In this document: piece after piece, positions 14,940 through 55,117 of the stretch
Layout: each line of letters starts with the position of its first letter
How positions within the stretch are numbered: position 1 is the first letter of the stretch
NCBI RefSeq assembly: GCF_015732155.1
Contig: NZ_WIQK01000001.1
Coordinates: 1,622,001-1,686,000, forward strand
Length of the DNA: 64,000 bases
Origin: Pectinatus sottacetonis
GTDB lineage: Bacteria; Bacillota; Negativicutes; Selenomonadales; Selenomonadaceae
Reading direction: 5' to 3'
Notes under the pieces: generated by a model
What the model was told of the DNA's origin: nothing
The model's database searches: none
Seen by the model: only the letters and a program-made list of their open reading frames with translations
Program-made: the position numbers and the translations under genes

Positions 14940-14957
14940 ATGATAAAAGGAATTGAT
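14940..14957 (+). CDS. GH25 lysozyme, exon 1 (interrupted by the IStron)
   Basis: Six codons, MIKGID, follow a GAGGG ribosome binding site at about 14929-14933. They are followed directly by TAA of the inserted element, so unspliced RNA would give only a hexapeptide. GH25 lysozymes typically begin with a short strand ending in G-x-D, where the Asp (here D6) is part of the active site. Joining GAT at 14955-14957 to ATA at 17157-17159 gives MIKGIDISENNGSIDW, a canonical GH25 start. ATG at 14934 in the same frame is an alternative start with poorer spacing. Confidence 0.88.
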
Positions 14958-15420
14958 TAAATGGGAGCCGCACACTCGTGACTTCAGTCAGAGTTAGGCG
15001 ACCAAACTAGTCAGTATGTATAGAAATATGCATATAGAGATTGGCAAAGACCAATACAATACTGCCTGAAATGCTGGAAACTCCTAAAGACAGTATGGCC
15101 ACAACGCTAAGATGAAATAAGCTCAAACGTGACGGCAACGAAAGTAGAAAAAATATGCTGTATGGTGCAAGGTTAAACCCTAAACACTAAGAAAATGGAC
15201 AATCAGCAGGAAAGCTCCGAACAGGAGAATCCCCAACGACTATTCCTCTTGAGGGAAGTACAGCCAAGCGGCTGGAAGTGGGCAGACCTTAACGGATAAT
15301 GCCGAAGGACAAGATATAGTCTGTGCTTTATGGAAACATAAAGGAGTTCATAAGAGAACCGCATGGGAAGTAACAAGCCCGTGTGAACGACACCTCCCCA
15401 ATACGACTAAAAAAGAACTT
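14958..15420 (+). ncRNA. Group I self-splicing intron, catalytic core (3' splice site at 17156)
   Basis: Recognisable group I elements are visible. P7 is formed by GACTAT (15238-15243) and ATAGTC (15316-15321); the second strand sits in AAGATATAGTC, the conserved S element. P9 is CTTTATG-GAAA-CATAAAG (15326-15343). A joining segment with AATCAGCAGGAAAGCTCC lies near 15201-15218. Exon 1 ends in U, and the internal guide GTCAG (14987-14991) can pair with TTGAT of exon 1 including the U-G pair of P1. The intron ends in G at 17156 (TTCAG), the omega-G. Subgroup was not determined, and helices other than P1, P7 and P9 were not modelled. Confidence 0.88.
14979..14990. repeat. Left-end subterminal hairpin of the IStron
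   Basis: TGAC-TTCA-GTCA forms a perfect 4-bp stem with a 4-base loop, 21 bases inside the left end. Y1 transposases recognise such hairpins in single-stranded DNA. It overlaps the proposed internal guide sequence of the ribozyme (14987-14991). Confidence 0.6.
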
Positions 15421-15442
15421 ACGGTTCTTACATATGTTATTA
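15421..15442. repeat. Left arm of the inverted repeat bracketing tnpA-tnpB
   Basis: This 22-base segment is complementary at 21 of 22 positions to 17035-17056. In the intron RNA the arms would form a stem that loops out the whole tnpA-tnpB coding region and brings the 5' ribozyme core next to the 3' splice-site region. Confidence 0.7.
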
Positions 15443-15518
15443 ATAAAATGCCATTAATTACTTATTAATAATTGCTTTAATAAAATACATATGTTATTAT
15501 TATATGAGAGGTGATCAT

Positions 15519-15920
15519 ATGAAAGTAACATATGGTAGAGGATATGCTTTTTCGTTACAATATCATATTGTTTGGTGTGTGAAATACCGTAGAAAAGTAT
15601 TAACGCAAGAAATAGAAACAAGTCTTATGGAAATTATAGATAAGATAGCAAAAGACAACAATTTCCAAATTCTTGAAGCAAACACAGATGAAGATCATAT
15701 CCATTTGCTTGTTAACTGTACTCCTCAACATTATATTCCCAATATCATAAAAGCTCTGAAAGGTGTTTCTGCAAGGCTTTTAATGAAAAAACATGGGAAT
15801 TTTTTAAAACCAAAATTGTGGGGTGAACATCTCTGGAATCCAAGTTATTTTATAGCTACAGTTTCAGAGAATACAGAAAAGCAAGTTCGAGAATACATTT
15901 TAAAGCAAAAAGAAAAGTGA
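15519..15920 (+). CDS. tnpA: IS200/IS605-type Y1 transposase TnpA
   Basis: The 133-aa protein is a single-domain HUH transposase. The HUH motif is HIHLLV in EDHIHLLVNC, and the candidate nucleophilic tyrosine is in VREYILKQ near the C-terminus. TnpA cuts and rejoins single-stranded DNA at the hairpin-marked ends. An upstream in-frame ATG at 15504 exists, but ATG at 15519 follows GAGAGGTGATCAT, where AGGTGA is the ribosome binding site, and gives the usual MKVTYGRGYAFSLQYH start. tnpB follows after 7 bases. It appears full length and undamaged. Confidence 0.93.
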   Translation: MKVTYGRGYAFSLQYHIVWCVKYRRKVLTQEIETSLMEIIDKIAKDNNFQILEANTDEDHIHLLVNCTPQHYIPNIIKALKGVSARLLMKKHGNFLKPKLWGEHLWNPSYFIATVSENTEKQVREYILKQKEK

Positions 15921-15927
15921 GTAATTA

Positions 15928-17037
15928 ATGGAAAAAGCCTTCAAATTTAGGATATATCCCAACAAAACACAAGAAATACTGATACAAAAAACATTTGGTT
16001 GTGTAAGATATGTTTATAATTATTATCTCAATATGCGAATTAAAGCATATAAGGACGATAATACAACACTTACATATTCTAAGTGTTCAAGAAATTTAAC
16101 GCAATTGAAGAAAGAAAACATCTGGCTAAAAGAGCCGGATAAATGTTCTTTGCAAAATTCGTTAAAAGACCTCGATACTGCCTATCAGAATTTCTTTAAA
16201 CGTAAAAATGTTGGCTTTCCTAAATTCAAGTCCAAAAAGAACAGGCATAAATCTTACAAGACAAACTTTACCAATGGTAATATTGAGTTTTTAGGCACAA
16301 AGATAAAGCTGCCTAAGCTGGGTAAGGTAAAAATAAGAGATAAACAAATACCACAGGGCAGAATCTTAAATGCTGTAATATCGCAAACACCCGATGGTAA
16401 ATACTTTGTATCTCTATGTTGTACAGAAATAGAAAAACCTGTTTTTAATCGTACTGACAACTATGTTGGTATCGATCTTGGCTTAAAAGAATTTGCAATT
16501 ACCTCCGATGGCGATAAAGAACCCCATCACAAATACCTCGAGCAGTCATTAAATAAACTTGCAAAACTGCAAAGAAACTCATCCCGAAAAACAAAGGACA
16601 GCTCAAACAGGAACAAAGCAAGAATCAAAGTGGCAAGGCTGCAGGCACGTATTGCAAATCAGCGAAAAGATATGCTGCATAAACTATCTCATAGACTTAT
16701 AGAAAATTACGATGTTATCTGCTTAGAGGATTTGCAAGTAAATAACATGCTGAAAAACCACAAACTAGCTCGCAGTATTATAGATGCCAGCTGGTCAGAA
16801 TTTACGCGTCAGCTAAAATATAAAGCTCAGTGGTATGGCAAAGAAATAGTACAAATAGACAAATTCTATCCATCAAGCCAGCTGTGCCATAATTGTGGTT
16901 ACCGGAACAAAGAAATAAAAGACCTTACTATAAGACAGTGGGAATGTCCTAACTGTAAAGCCCAGCATGACAGAGATATAAATGCCGCCATAAACATTCG
17001 CAATGAAGGACTAAGAATATTAAAGATAACAGCGTAA
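15928..17037 (+). CDS. tnpB: TnpB RNA-guided nuclease of the IStron
   Basis: The 369-aa protein belongs to the TnpB family, ancestors of Cas12. The RuvC triad appears intact: D183 in VGIDLGLKEF, E267 in CLEDLQVNN and D350 in HDRDINAAINI. A zinc finger lies between the last two (CHNCGYR and CPNC). The N-terminal helix-turn-helix and OB/WED region begins KAFKFRIYPNKTQEILIQ. TnpB cuts DNA next to a target-adjacent motif that equals the insertion pentamer, here TTGAT, guided by an omega-RNA from the element's right end. This promotes retention of the element after TnpA excision. Confidence 0.93.
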   Translation: MEKAFKFRIYPNKTQEILIQKTFGCVRYVYNYYLNMRIKAYKDDNTTLTYSKCSRNLTQLKKENIWLKEPDKCSLQNSLKDLDTAYQNFFKRKNVGFPKFKSKKNRHKSYKTNFTNGNIEFLGTKIKLPKLGKVKIRDKQIPQGRILNAVISQTPDGKYFVSLCCTEIEKPVFNRTDNYVGIDLGLKEFAITSDGDKEPHHKYLEQSLNKLAKLQRNSSRKTKDSSNRNKARIKVARLQARIANQRKDMLHKLSHRLIENYDVICLEDLQVNNMLKNHKLARSIIDASWSEFTRQLKYKAQWYGKEIVQIDKFYPSSQLCHNCGYRNKEIKDLTIRQWECPNCKAQHDRDINAAINIRNEGLRILKITA

Positions 17038-17056
17038 TAACATATATAAGAACCGT
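17035..17056. repeat. Right arm of the inverted repeat bracketing tnpA-tnpB
   Basis: It is complementary at 21 of 22 positions to 15421-15442 and begins at the tnpB stop codon. It is followed by and overlaps a second hairpin, CCGTAG-GAA-CTACGG (17053-17067), so the two structures compete for bases 17053-17056. Confidence 0.7.
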
Positions 17057-17132
17057 AGGAACTACGGGGATAGCCTGTGGAGATAATGTAAGACGTGAAT
17101 TTTGCGCAACTATCTGTGAAGCAGGAACCCTG

Positions 17133-17144
17133 CGACTTTAGTCG
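17133..17144. repeat. Right-end subterminal hairpin of the IStron
   Basis: CGAC-TTTA-GTCG, a perfect 4-bp stem ending 12 bases before the right boundary, mirrors the left-end hairpin at 14979-14990. It is a likely TnpA recognition site and also part of the omega-RNA and of the intron 3' end. Confidence 0.6.
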
Positions 17145-17156
17145 TGGGAGGTTCAG

Positions 17157-17714
17157 ATAAGTGAGAATAATGGTAGTATTGACTGGCTGGCAGTTGCAGC
17201 AGCGGGAATAAAATTCGCTATTGTACGCTGCAGTATGGGACGATTTGAACAAGATGATTTATTTGTCTCTAATGTAGATAAGGCACATGCTGCTGGATTA
17301 AAAGTAGGGGCATATCATTATTCTTATGCGCTAGATGCGCAGCAGGCTTTGGAAGAAGTTCAAAATTGTTGTAAAACGATAAAAGACAGCGGGCTGTCGT
17401 TGGAGTTACCAGTATTTTATGATATGGAAGATGCTGATGGCTGGAAAGCCAGGCATAATTTTGTTTTTAATAAAAACCATATTACGGAAATGTGTCACGT
17501 GTTTGTGAAGAATATGGGGGTGGATTGCGGGGTATATGCATCTTATTATTGGCTGTGCAATTATATAGACTGGCAGTCTCTGCAGTGTCCCATATGGAAT
17601 GCCCAGTGGGGAAATACAGATGATTTGCGGGGATATATGTGGCAGTATACAGATAAACTGAAAATAGGCAGAAATTTTTTTGATGGCGATTTTTTTTATA
17701 ATTCTGTAACCTGA
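17157..17714 (+). CDS. GH25 lysozyme, exon 2
   Basis: The frame from ATA at 17157 reads ISENNGSIDWLAVAAAGIKF and continues to TGA at 17714. Spliced to exon 1 it gives 191 aa, the size of a single GH25 (Lyc) domain. Active-site residues are D6 (exon 1), D95 and E97 in PVFYDMEDADG, with YHYSYA and GVYASYYWL as further family motifs. GH25 enzymes hydrolyse the beta-1,4 bond between N-acetylmuramic acid and N-acetylglucosamine. There is no signal peptide and no SH3 or cell-wall repeat, so export or a phage-like lysis role is unclear. Translation from internal ATG 17235 alone would lack D6. Confidence 0.88.
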   Translation: MSENNGSIDWLAVAAAGIKFAIVRCSMGRFEQDDLFVSNVDKAHAAGLKVGAYHYSYALDAQQALEEVQNCCKTIKDSGLSLELPVFYDMEDADGWKARHNFVFNKNHITEMCHVFVKNMGVDCGVYASYYWLCNYIDWQSLQCPIWNAQWGNTDDLRGYMWQYTDKLKIGRNFFDGDFFYNSVT

Positions 17715-22480: not shown

Positions 22481-22497
22481 AAACTTCTATTACCAAT

Positions 22498-22580
22498 ACT
22501 TCCTACGCAGGCATTATCCCGATCAGGTCAAAGGTCAGGTGCTTACAGCCCTTTCTCAGCCTATAACATAGGCTCCCTTG
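22498..22580 (-). promoter_or_regulatory. TPP riboswitch (THI element)
   Basis: Read on the minus strand the region contains GGGAGCC, GGCTGAGAAAGGGC, ACCTTTGACCTGATC and AATGCCTGCGTAGGAAGT in the order and spacing of the TPP aptamer. It precedes an intrinsic terminator and thiSGHE, so it should repress thiazole and thiamine phosphate synthesis when thiamine pyrophosphate is plentiful. Confidence 0.96.
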
Positions 22581-22656
22581 TAAAAATATTTATTTTATAT
22601 ATGCTATTTTATGCCGATAAAGTAAATTTGTCAAATCATTAAAAAATAATATCATA

Positions 22657-38424: not shown

Positions 38425-38459
38425 ATTATCTGTACATGAACTGAAAATTGAATATAATG

Positions 38460-38612
38460 AACCAGGTGCCTTAAAGGCTCAATAGAGAAGCCGGTAAAAG
38501 CCGGCACGGTCCCGCCACTGTAACAGGGAGCAATTTTACAAAATGTCACTGAGTAATTATCTTGGGAAGGCGTAAAAGAGCGAAGATCTGAAGTCAGGAG
38601 AACTGCCTGGTT
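38460..38612 (+). promoter_or_regulatory. Cobalamin riboswitch
   Basis: Conserved blocks appear in order: AGGTGCC, AAGCCGGCACGGTCCCGCC, ACTGTAACAGGGAG, TGTCACTG, TTGGGAAGGCG, CGAAGATCTGAAGTCAGGAG and ACTGCCTGG. The closing helix is AACCAGG (38460-38466) with CCTGGTT (38606-38612). It lies upstream of a terminator and the BtuB-type receptor, so adenosylcobalamin or another cobalamin should switch off receptor synthesis. Confidence 0.95.
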
Positions 38613-38702
38613 AACAAATCACGGTTATGACCTACGAGCGATGGGAAATGGGATTTATTGTAATTGTATATTAAGCACCGATAGGGGTTTATAATGTACA
38701 CT

Positions 38703-55033: not shown

Positions 55034-55117
55034 TGGTGCGGAAGACAGGACTTGAACCTGCACTCACGGGGAACTAGATCCTAAGTCTAGCGCGTCTGCC
55101 AATTCCGCCACTTCCGC
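55034..55117 (-). tRNA. tRNA-Leu (anticodon TAG)
   Basis: The minus strand reads GCGGAAGTGGCGGAATTGGC from the 5' end and closes with CTTCCGC, discriminator A and encoded CCA. The anticodon arm is CTAGA-CTTAGGA-TCTAG (anticodon TAG), a variable arm is present and the T-loop region reads GGTTCAAGTCC. It decodes CUN leucine codons. Confidence 0.95.

What the first reader, a model, noticed from the sequence alone, without database searches (positions are those of the whole stretch)
15421..17056. 22-nt inverted repeat brackets the tnpA-tnpB coding block within the intron RNA
Bases 15421-15442 and 17035-17056 are complementary at 21 of 22 positions; the right arm starts at the tnpB stop. In RNA this would form a long stem looping out about 1.6 kb of coding sequence, bringing the ribozyme core close to the 3' splice site. 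It could help splicing despite the large insert, and it would also cover the region before the tnpA ribosome binding site. I do not know whether this is common to IStrons.
Basis: partly seen in the sequence, partly recalled or inferred. Interest (0 to 1): 0.65.

Follow-up and report, generated by a model that had tools for sequence, protein, structure and literature searches.

The report
Intron stem overlapping a guide RNA
A bacterial jumping gene inside a self-splicing intron carries two matching arms around its genes; related elements keep the arms matched, and the stem they would form uses up a strand that the jumping gene's guide RNA also needs, so one transcript may have to choose between splicing and making guide RNA.

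Summary
The inverted repeat is real: 22 of 23 positions (15420-15442 / 17035-17057), the longest in the element and beyond all 100 shuffles. The element is a group A IStron (14958-17156, target TTGAT, end TCAG) in a GH25 lysozyme gene of a Pectinatus genome.

Added here: (1) Across 34 distinct IStrons (23 TnpB clusters) the arms stay complementary while their sequences diverge; median 21.5 pairs, against 6-10 bp published for group A. (2) The right arm contains the 5' strand of what looks like stem 1 of the TnpB guide RNA (omegaRNA). In the commonest clade (25) predicted stem 1 probability falls from a mean of 0.64 to 0.03 when the left region is present, and where stem 1 changed, the left arm changed with it.

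Best reading: an intron-folding stem that is also an anti-guide strand. The helix is well supported, loop-out of the genes likely, the splice-or-guide switch inferred (about 0.5). Covering the tnpA ribosome site is not supported. The 2024 Science paper on IStron splicing versus guide RNA could not be read.

The parts
14940..14957 (+). 5' exon: start of a GH25 lysozyme gene (MIKGID), ending in the target TTGAT
   Evidence: Exons 14940-14957 and 17157-17714 join in frame to 191 aa; Pfam GH25 match improves from 2e-16 (profile 32-177) for the 3' ORF alone to 1.3e-26 (profile 1-177 of 180) for the joined protein
14958..17156 (+). whole IStron (group I intron plus IS200/IS605 element), begins UAA, ends TCAG
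   Evidence: Boundaries from exon joining, from the shared ends of 11 copies in the genome and the published group A ends
14958..15391 (+). group I ribozyme core to the GAACG(A) motif after P9.2
   Evidence: Homologous to introns that pass Rfam RF00028 in 16 of 20 loci given; the window itself did not match RF00028 at gathering or at E up to 5
15392..15398 (+). 5' strand of terminal helix, ACCUCCC
   Evidence: Pairs with 17146-17152; helix of 5 or more pairs in 33 of 34 IStrons, mean 7.2 pairs against 4.68 for shuffled 5' strands (maximum 5.18 of 200)
15418..15442 (+). left arm of the IR stem
15472..15500 (+). possible internal promoter TTGCTT-17-TATTAT downstream of the left arm
   Evidence: Weak: not above shuffles in this copy (56 of 100) and not listed by the consensus scan; 7 of 34 elements exceed shuffles at 5%
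15519..15920 (+). tnpA (Y1 transposase); ORF also open from 15504
   Evidence: Pfam Y1_Tnp 8.8e-41; only copy of this TnpA in the genome
15928..17037 (+). tnpB (RNA-guided nuclease), stop TAA inside the right arm
   Evidence: Pfam OrfB_IS605 8.9e-25 and Cas12f1-like_TNB 5.2e-26
17035..17059 (+). right arm of the IR stem
17053..17067 (+). omegaRNA stem 1: CCGUAG / CUACGG around loop GAA; its 5' strand is inside the right arm
   Evidence: 6 of 6 distinct sequence types fully paired, with two pairs changed on both sides; further compensated forms in intron-less IS605 relatives and in L106
17059..17062 (+). stem 1 loop strand of the omegaRNA pseudoknot, with 17151-17154
   Evidence: 34/34, 33/34, 34/34 and 27/34 standard pairs at its four positions, with double changes A-U to C-G and C-G to U-A; matches the ISDra2 pseudoknot
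17129..17148 (+). omegaRNA stem 4 / right-end palindrome around the UUUA loop
   Evidence: Sequence and RNAalifold on 4 sequences; UUUA tetraloop as in ISDra2
17146..17152 (+). 3' strand of terminal helix, just before the 3' splice site
17157..17714 (+). 3' exon of the GH25 gene; also the would-be guide of the omegaRNA
   Evidence: guide role inferred from IS605 TnpB biology

Best explanation
The inverted repeat is the IR stem of a group A IStron. In RNA read in from the host gene the two arms pair, close off the tnpA-tnpB insert and bring the 3' splice-site side back to the ribozyme (helix shown by covariation; effect on splicing inferred). Because the right arm contains the 5' strand of omegaRNA stem 1, the same pairing takes the guide RNA apart; the left arm is therefore also an anti-omegaRNA strand that biases intron-containing RNA to splicing, while RNA that lacks the left arm, such as RNA started inside the element, can fold as guide RNA (mutual exclusion computed; biological switch inferred).
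For: 31 of 34 distinct elements have a left-right duplex that at most 1 of 200 shuffled left regions equals; 20 of 23 TnpB clusters do so with every member. The element's own right arm beats the mean of dissimilar right arms in 33 of 34, and beats every one of them in 23 of 34. Cells changed on both sides: 38 against 15.9 +/- 3.0 in shuffles, 0 of 500 reaching it; 82.3% paired against 36.8-45.9% for slid partners. Full pairing is more stable than shortened stem plus stem 1 in 23/25, 2/2 and 3/7 elements of the three stem 1 types. Stem 1 probability 0.64 to 0.03 (25 elements), 0.98 to 0.00 (2), 0.79 to 0.34 (7) without and with the left region. Left arm follows changed stem 1 strands: GCGGUAGG in L181 and L202, CCGCCGG in L106. 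5 of 6 intron-less IS605 relatives with an equivalent stem 1 show no significant left partner.
Against: No splicing, structure-probing or RNA data. In the CCGAAGG (Enterococcus/Paenibacillus/Peptostreptococcus) clade the stem covers only the edge of stem 1 and exclusion is weak. In 7 of 25 CCGTAGG elements stem 1 is not above 0.5 even alone. L086, L111 and L135 are not significant at 1 in 200. Two covariation measures (number of pairs with double change, number of pair types) do not exceed shuffles over all elements (146 and 238 of 500 reach them). Within the stem-1 part the right side is nearly invariant, so most covariation comes from the A-U-rich half; left-side mismatches occur there (7 of 22 at one position). 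The internal promoter is weak (7 of 34). G-U against A-C counts did not favour RNA over DNA. L233 carries the arm though no intron was found. Compact ORF-less introns lack both arms, so the stem is not needed for every intron of this kind.
Confidence: 0.55

Rival explanations
1. Loop-out only: the stem merely shortens the distance from ribozyme to 3' splice site and stabilises the intron; overlap with omegaRNA stem 1 is a by-product of where the right end begins.
For: Published model of an IR stem enclosing the ORFs in all IStrons. In the CCGAAGG clade the stem barely enters stem 1. Two ORF-shortened copies (L040, L049) keep both arms.
Against: In 23 of 25 CCGTAGG and 2 of 2 GCGGTAGG elements full invasion of stem 1 is predicted to be favoured, and the left arm follows compensated changes of stem 1 (L181, L202, L106). 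A pure loop-out stem would not need that strand.
Confidence: 0.28
2. DNA-level repeat: the arms serve recombination, excision of the ORF cassette or protein binding, and RNA pairing is incidental.
For: ORF-less BcISt1 derivatives excise at repeats beside the IR. G-U and A-C cells are about equally frequent, so wobble gives no sign of RNA.
Against: The known TnpA substrates are the end palindromes, not these internal arms. 10 of the 11 whole copies compared share one organisation, no inverted cassette was seen among them (not searched systematically). Long ungapped A-U-rich complementarity is held while sequences diverge.
Confidence: 0.08
3. Relic: the left arm descends from a duplicated tnpA promoter or start motif (ACATATGTTAT also lies at 15488-15498 and, inverted, in the tnpA start and the right arm), and complementarity has no function.
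For: Direct repeat D2 and inverted pairs I8, I11 in the window.
Against: Complementarity persists over 23 TnpB clusters with different sequences and tracks the element's own right arm.
Confidence: 0.04
4. Translation control: the arms regulate tnpA or tnpB expression or 3' end stability from read-through RNA, as in fold-back control of other insertion sequences (recalled, not found in the library).
For: The tnpB stop lies in the right arm; a separate hairpin over the tnpA start is strong in this copy (0 of 200 shuffles).
Against: The left arm ends about 65 nt before the tnpA ribosome site; the tnpA start hairpin reached 0 of 200 only in the window copy among 11 starts tested, 6-8 of 200 in three others.
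Confidence: 0.05

Closest known systems
IR stem of group A IStrons (CdISt1 type), Tourasse et al. 2014, PMC4227781 (sections 14 and 15, part 1 of section 20, and passages read)
   Same: Inverted repeats flanking the ORFs, placed after P9.2 and a GAACGA-type motif; IS200/IS605 ORFs; TTGAT target; TCAG end
   Different: Published as 6-10 bp, balanced G-C/A-U, for group A; here 24 pairs with 1 mismatch and a median of 21.5 over 34 elements. The 2014 survey predates knowledge of TnpB guide RNAs and does not mention the overlap in the parts read
ISDra2 TnpB omegaRNA, Nakagawa et al. 2023, PMC10097598 (passages read)
   Same: 5' stem 1, pseudoknot between upstream GAA-type bases and the UUC just before the guide, UUUA loop in stem 4, TTGAT motif
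   Different: Here the scaffold lies inside an intron and its stem 1 strand doubles as an intron arm; in this element the stem 1 loop is 3 nt, whereas the ISDra2 numbering implies a longer loop; mapping of stem 1 is by analogy
IStron splicing versus guide RNA conflict, Zedaveinyte et al. 2024, Science 385:eadm8189 (title seen in a reference list; content recalled, not held)
   Same: Splicing and guide RNA production compete in one element (recalled)
   Different: That work is recalled as concerning an IS607-type element of Clostridium botulinum; whether it reports an arm-to-stem-1 conflict could not be checked

Membership tests
Group A IStron | group I intron ribozyme (class IA2) | tested here: inconclusive
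   Core is 71-81% identical to introns in many loci; 16 of 20 loci given pass Rfam RF00028, but the window itself does not. Subclass IA2 not tested
[quoted passage not shown]
   TTGAT at 14953-14957; exon join restores a full GH25 protein
Group A IStron | 3' terminus TCAG | tested here: met
   17153-17156
Group A IStron | IS200/IS605 ORFs downstream of P9.2 after a GAACGA-type motif | tested here: met
   GAACGA 15385-15390; Y1 TnpA and TnpB
[quoted passage not shown]
   longer than the published 6-10 bp
Group A IStron | RNA splices | not testable with these tools
   No RNA data
IS605-type omegaRNA (ISDra2 architecture) | pseudoknot between 5' hairpin region and the bases just before the guide | tested here: met
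   34/34, 33/34, 34/34 pairs at the three ISDra2 positions, with double changes
IS605-type omegaRNA (ISDra2 architecture) | stem 1 | tested here: met
   CCGUAG/CUACGG conserved and compensated, also in intron-less IS605 relatives; equivalence to ISDra2 stem 1 by analogy
IS605-type omegaRNA (ISDra2 architecture) | bound by TnpB and directs cleavage | not testable with these tools
   -
Riboswitch-like two-state RNA (anti-guide switch) | two mutually exclusive folds, both under selection | tested here: inconclusive
   Both helices show compensated changes and exclude each other in silico; no evidence that the choice is regulated

The most novel reading that the evidence does not exclude
IStrons carry a built-in decision strand. 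The left arm lies between the ribozyme and the transposase genes and is antisense to stem 1 of the guide RNA. RNA that comes from the host gene contains it, folds as intron and splices; RNA started inside the element lacks it and makes guide RNA. A second conflict at the 3' end (terminal helix 15392-15398/17146-17152 against omegaRNA stem 4 and pseudoknot) enforces the choice. Since the tnpB stop codon lies in or within about 30 nt of the right arm in the 34 elements compared, a ribosome finishing TnpB could open the stem and tie guide RNA release to TnpB synthesis.
Probability: 0.45. Interest if true: 0.8.

Novelty: new member of a known kind. Interest (0 to 1): 0.57.

Why it matters
IStrons must hide (by splicing) and also keep their place (TnpB with guide RNA). 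How one RNA balances the two is an open question that this makes directly testable: the stem, its competitor hairpin and the bases to change are named. If the switch is real, the left arm is a natural antisense off-switch for a TnpB guide RNA, and arm strength would tune splicing against guide production. Even if the stem only loops out the genes, the covariation turns a 2014 folding prediction into a supported helix and shows that it is much longer in group A than published.

Tried and rejected
A local hairpin in the left arm (AAGAAC / GUUCUU) looked like a third alternative fold but is paired no more than in shuffles (68.4% against 68.1%): dropped. RNAalifold on 4 sequences paired GAACC of the right arm with GGUUC at the 3' end; elements L181 and L202 lack that GAACC, and the loop-to-3'-end pseudoknot fits better. 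Wobble asymmetry as a sign of RNA rather than DNA: G-U and A-C cells about equal, no use. Internal promoter downstream of the left arm: only 7 of 34 beat shuffles at 5%, so kept as a weak point. Fold-back hairpin over the tnpA start: strong here, not general. Two first patterns: the pattern did not even fit the window and found nothing.

Rows dropped before counts: 217 pattern instances, 65 with a TnpB-like ORF; of these, identical left/right pairs were merged and L043 and L186 dropped for lack of the hairpin motif, leaving 34. L043 was later seen to have CCATAG/CUAUGG and a left partner (-25.9). An earlier run anchored the hairpin wrongly in several elements and was replaced. Of 10 IS605 records fetched as controls, L238, L239 and L240 were left out of the arm test because the right region printed showed no equivalent stem 1.

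Full report
What is there. The window copy is an IStron, a group I intron fused to an IS200/IS605 transposon. It lies at 14958-17156, after TTGAT (14953-14957) and ending TCAG. Joining 14940-14957 to 17157-17714 gives a 191-residue GH25 lysozyme; the Pfam match rises from 2e-16 (profile 32-177) for the 3' ORF alone to 1.3e-26 (1-177 of 180) for the joined protein, and a same-genus genome, G067, has a 68% identical match across the insertion point (query 1-188, one TGA read through). tnpA and tnpB are identified by Pfam. The genus is Pectinatus: same-genus genome G054 is identical over 3341 bases to a Pectinatus brassicae record. The genome holds 11 copies with core end and right end; all keep both arms. 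Only the window copy has this TnpA.

The repeat. The arms 15420-15442 and 17035-17057 pair at 22 of 23 positions; with G-U, 24 pairs and one mismatch over 15418-15442 / 17035-17059. No shuffle of 100 reached more than 16. The right arm starts on the tnpB stop codon.

It is a known kind of feature. Tourasse et al. 2014 (PMC4227781; sections 14 and 15, part 1 of section 20 and passages read) state that in all IStrons the ORFs follow P9.2 and a GAACGA-type motif and are flanked by IR motifs predicted to form a stem, 6-10 bp in group A and 15-34 bp in group B. The window fits group A. Searches for later work found no held paper on IStrons and TnpB guide RNA together other than passing mentions; the 2024 Science paper on that subject is not held, so I cannot say that the overlap below is unpublished.

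Homologues. A pattern for the intron core gave 80 loci in genome contigs and 62 in viral contigs, added to loci from this genome, its relatives and plasmids or phages. Among 232 loci there were 217 core instances, 65 with a TnpB-like ORF downstream. After merging identical left/right pairs and dropping two without the hairpin motif, 34 distinct elements remained, in 23 TnpB clusters at 90% identity.

Is the helix maintained? Left region (90 nt after P9.2) against right region (32 nt ending in the hairpin strand): 31 of 34 have a duplex that at most 1 of 200 dinucleotide-shuffled left regions equals; the exceptions are L086 (3), L111 (4) and L135 (11). Ungapped helices have a median of 21.5 pairs, range 11-28. 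Against right arms less than 85% identical, the element's own right arm is better than the mean in 33 of 34 and better than every one in 23 of 34. On alignments of left and right made separately, 82.3% of 688 cells pair (shuffles 76.6 +/- 0.7; slid partners 36.8-45.9%), and 38 cells changed on both sides (shuffles 15.9 +/- 3.0; 0 of 500 reach it). The number of pairs with any double change (10; 146 of 500 shuffles reach it) and the number of pair types (27; 238 of 500) are not above shuffles. In the CCGTAGG clade alone: 87.9% against 84.4%, 20 double-change cells against 8.1, 0 of 500 for both; 7 pairs against 4.5, 17 of 500; types not above. I take the helix as real. Relatedness inflates such tests, so the cross-pairing and the independent examples below carry most weight.

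The right arm is guide RNA. Just after the arm's A-U half comes CCGUAG-GAA-CUACGG (17053-17067), then a scaffold ending in the UUUA hairpin and GUUCAG. This resembles the ISDra2 omegaRNA (PMC10097598, passages), in which bases -5 to -3 before the guide pair with -103 to -105 and stem 4 has a UUUA loop. Here the loop bases (17059-17062) and the end (17151-17154) pair in 34, 33, 34 and 27 of 34 elements, with double changes in the Enterococcus-type clade and in L123. Stem 1 itself is compensated in several ways: CGGUAG/CUACCG, CCGAA/UUCGG, CCGCCG/CGGCGG, and in intron-less IS605 elements CCGUGG/CCACGG. So stem 1 belongs to the guide RNA, with or without an intron.

The two folds exclude each other. 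The IR stem runs through the 5' strand of stem 1 in most elements of the CCGTAGG type. Full pairing is predicted more stable than a shortened IR stem plus stem 1 in 23 of 25 CCGTAGG, 2 of 2 GCGGTAGG and 3 of 7 CCGAAGG elements. With the left region as second strand, mean stem 1 probability falls from 0.64 to 0.03, 0.98 to 0.00 and 0.79 to 0.34 in the three types; it is below 0.5 in 24 of 25, 2 of 2 and 5 of 7. Alone it is above 0.5 in 18 of 25, 2 of 2 and 6 of 7. For the window copy: 0.75 alone, 0.00 with the left region. These are in-silico values for two strands, without ribozyme, protein or transcription order.

Does the left arm follow stem 1? Three lineages with a changed stem 1 strand have a changed, still complementary left arm: L202 and L181 (GCGGUAGG) and L106 (CCGCCGG, -34.7 kcal/mol). 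L101 shows the same for the A-U half. L101 and L106 have no intact TnpB ORF and are outside the 34. Against this, several CCGTAGG elements have left-side mismatches there (for example A opposite C in 7 of 22 at one pair).

Controls. Ten IS605 records without the intron core were fetched by TnpB similarity. Of the seven with an equivalent stem 1, five show no significant left partner (28 to 178 of 200 shuffles as good), L235 is at 4 of 200 with an interrupted pairing, and L233 (Fusobacterium) is at 0 of 200 although no intron was found beside it. L233 speaks against a strict link of arm and intron, or is an IStron that lost its intron.

The 3' end. Minimal ORF-less relatives (L128, L136, the second copy in L087, L155, L158) go from GAAC almost directly to GAGGUUCAG or a near form. 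This shows a terminal helix, here 15392-15398 with 17146-17152, of 5 or more pairs in 33 of 34 elements, mean 7.2 against 4.68 shuffled, with forms such as ACUCCAC/GUGGAGU and GCCUC/GAGGC. The IR stem sits inside it. L097 lost both arms and half of stem 1, L040 and L049 kept both. So compact introns can lack the IR stem; it goes with the insert. The terminal helix overlaps the pseudoknot strand and stem 4, a second point of conflict.

Mechanism. Shown: complementary arms, maintained complementarity, overlap with a conserved guide RNA hairpin, computed exclusion. Inferred: that the stem helps splicing, that it suppresses guide RNA in intron-containing RNA, that internal transcripts escape, that a terminating ribosome could open it. 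The internal promoter needed for escape is weak in sequence (7 of 34 above shuffles). I put the helix at about 0.95, a splicing or loop-out role at about 0.7, the anti-guide role at about 0.5.

The observation and the general idea of a closing stem hold. The stem does not reach the tnpA ribosome site. In this copy another hairpin (15488-15507 / 15515-15534) does cover the tnpA start, but it is not general.

Noticed in passing
L041, L061, L064, L066, L087, L105, L132, L152, L161, L178: A further IStron type: same intron core and right-end hairpin, but a different TnpB of 413-434 aa (often starting MYLTVKQQ). Short left/right complementarity seems to involve the tnpB 3' coding end (GGACACGCC; L061 has GGGCACGCC with a matching left change). 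Duplexes over long windows gave 0-12 of 200 shuffles as good.
   Followed up: partly
window 17047-17118: Best sub-threshold Rfam hit is Ref70 (RF02841, 'Enterococcus sRNA 70', 26.1 bits, gathering 115, E 0.098), matching omegaRNA stem 1 and what follows; Ref70 may itself be a TnpB guide RNA.
   Followed up: no
window 14958-15391: Rfam RF00028 does not find this intron even at E 5, while 16 of 20 related or co-fetched loci pass gathering.
   Followed up: no
genome G000, L023, L025, L027, L028, L029: Solitary right ends (omegaRNA region) without a full element in the same genome.
   Followed up: no
window 15504-15920 and G000: Only the window copy carries this tnpA; the other full copies are tnpB-only, so it may be the one driver of the family in this genome.
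   Followed up: partly
L103, L111, L197, L224: A TATAAT box ends only about 6-8 nt before the tnpA ATG, suggesting leaderless tnpA mRNA in this clade.
   Followed up: no
L233 (Fusobacterium vincentii record): IS605 element with the arm-to-stem-1 complementarity but no intron core found nearby.
   Followed up: partly
window 38447-38624 (+), 22483-22589 (-), 55037-55117 (-): Cobalamin riboswitch, TPP riboswitch and a tRNA gene.
   Followed up: no
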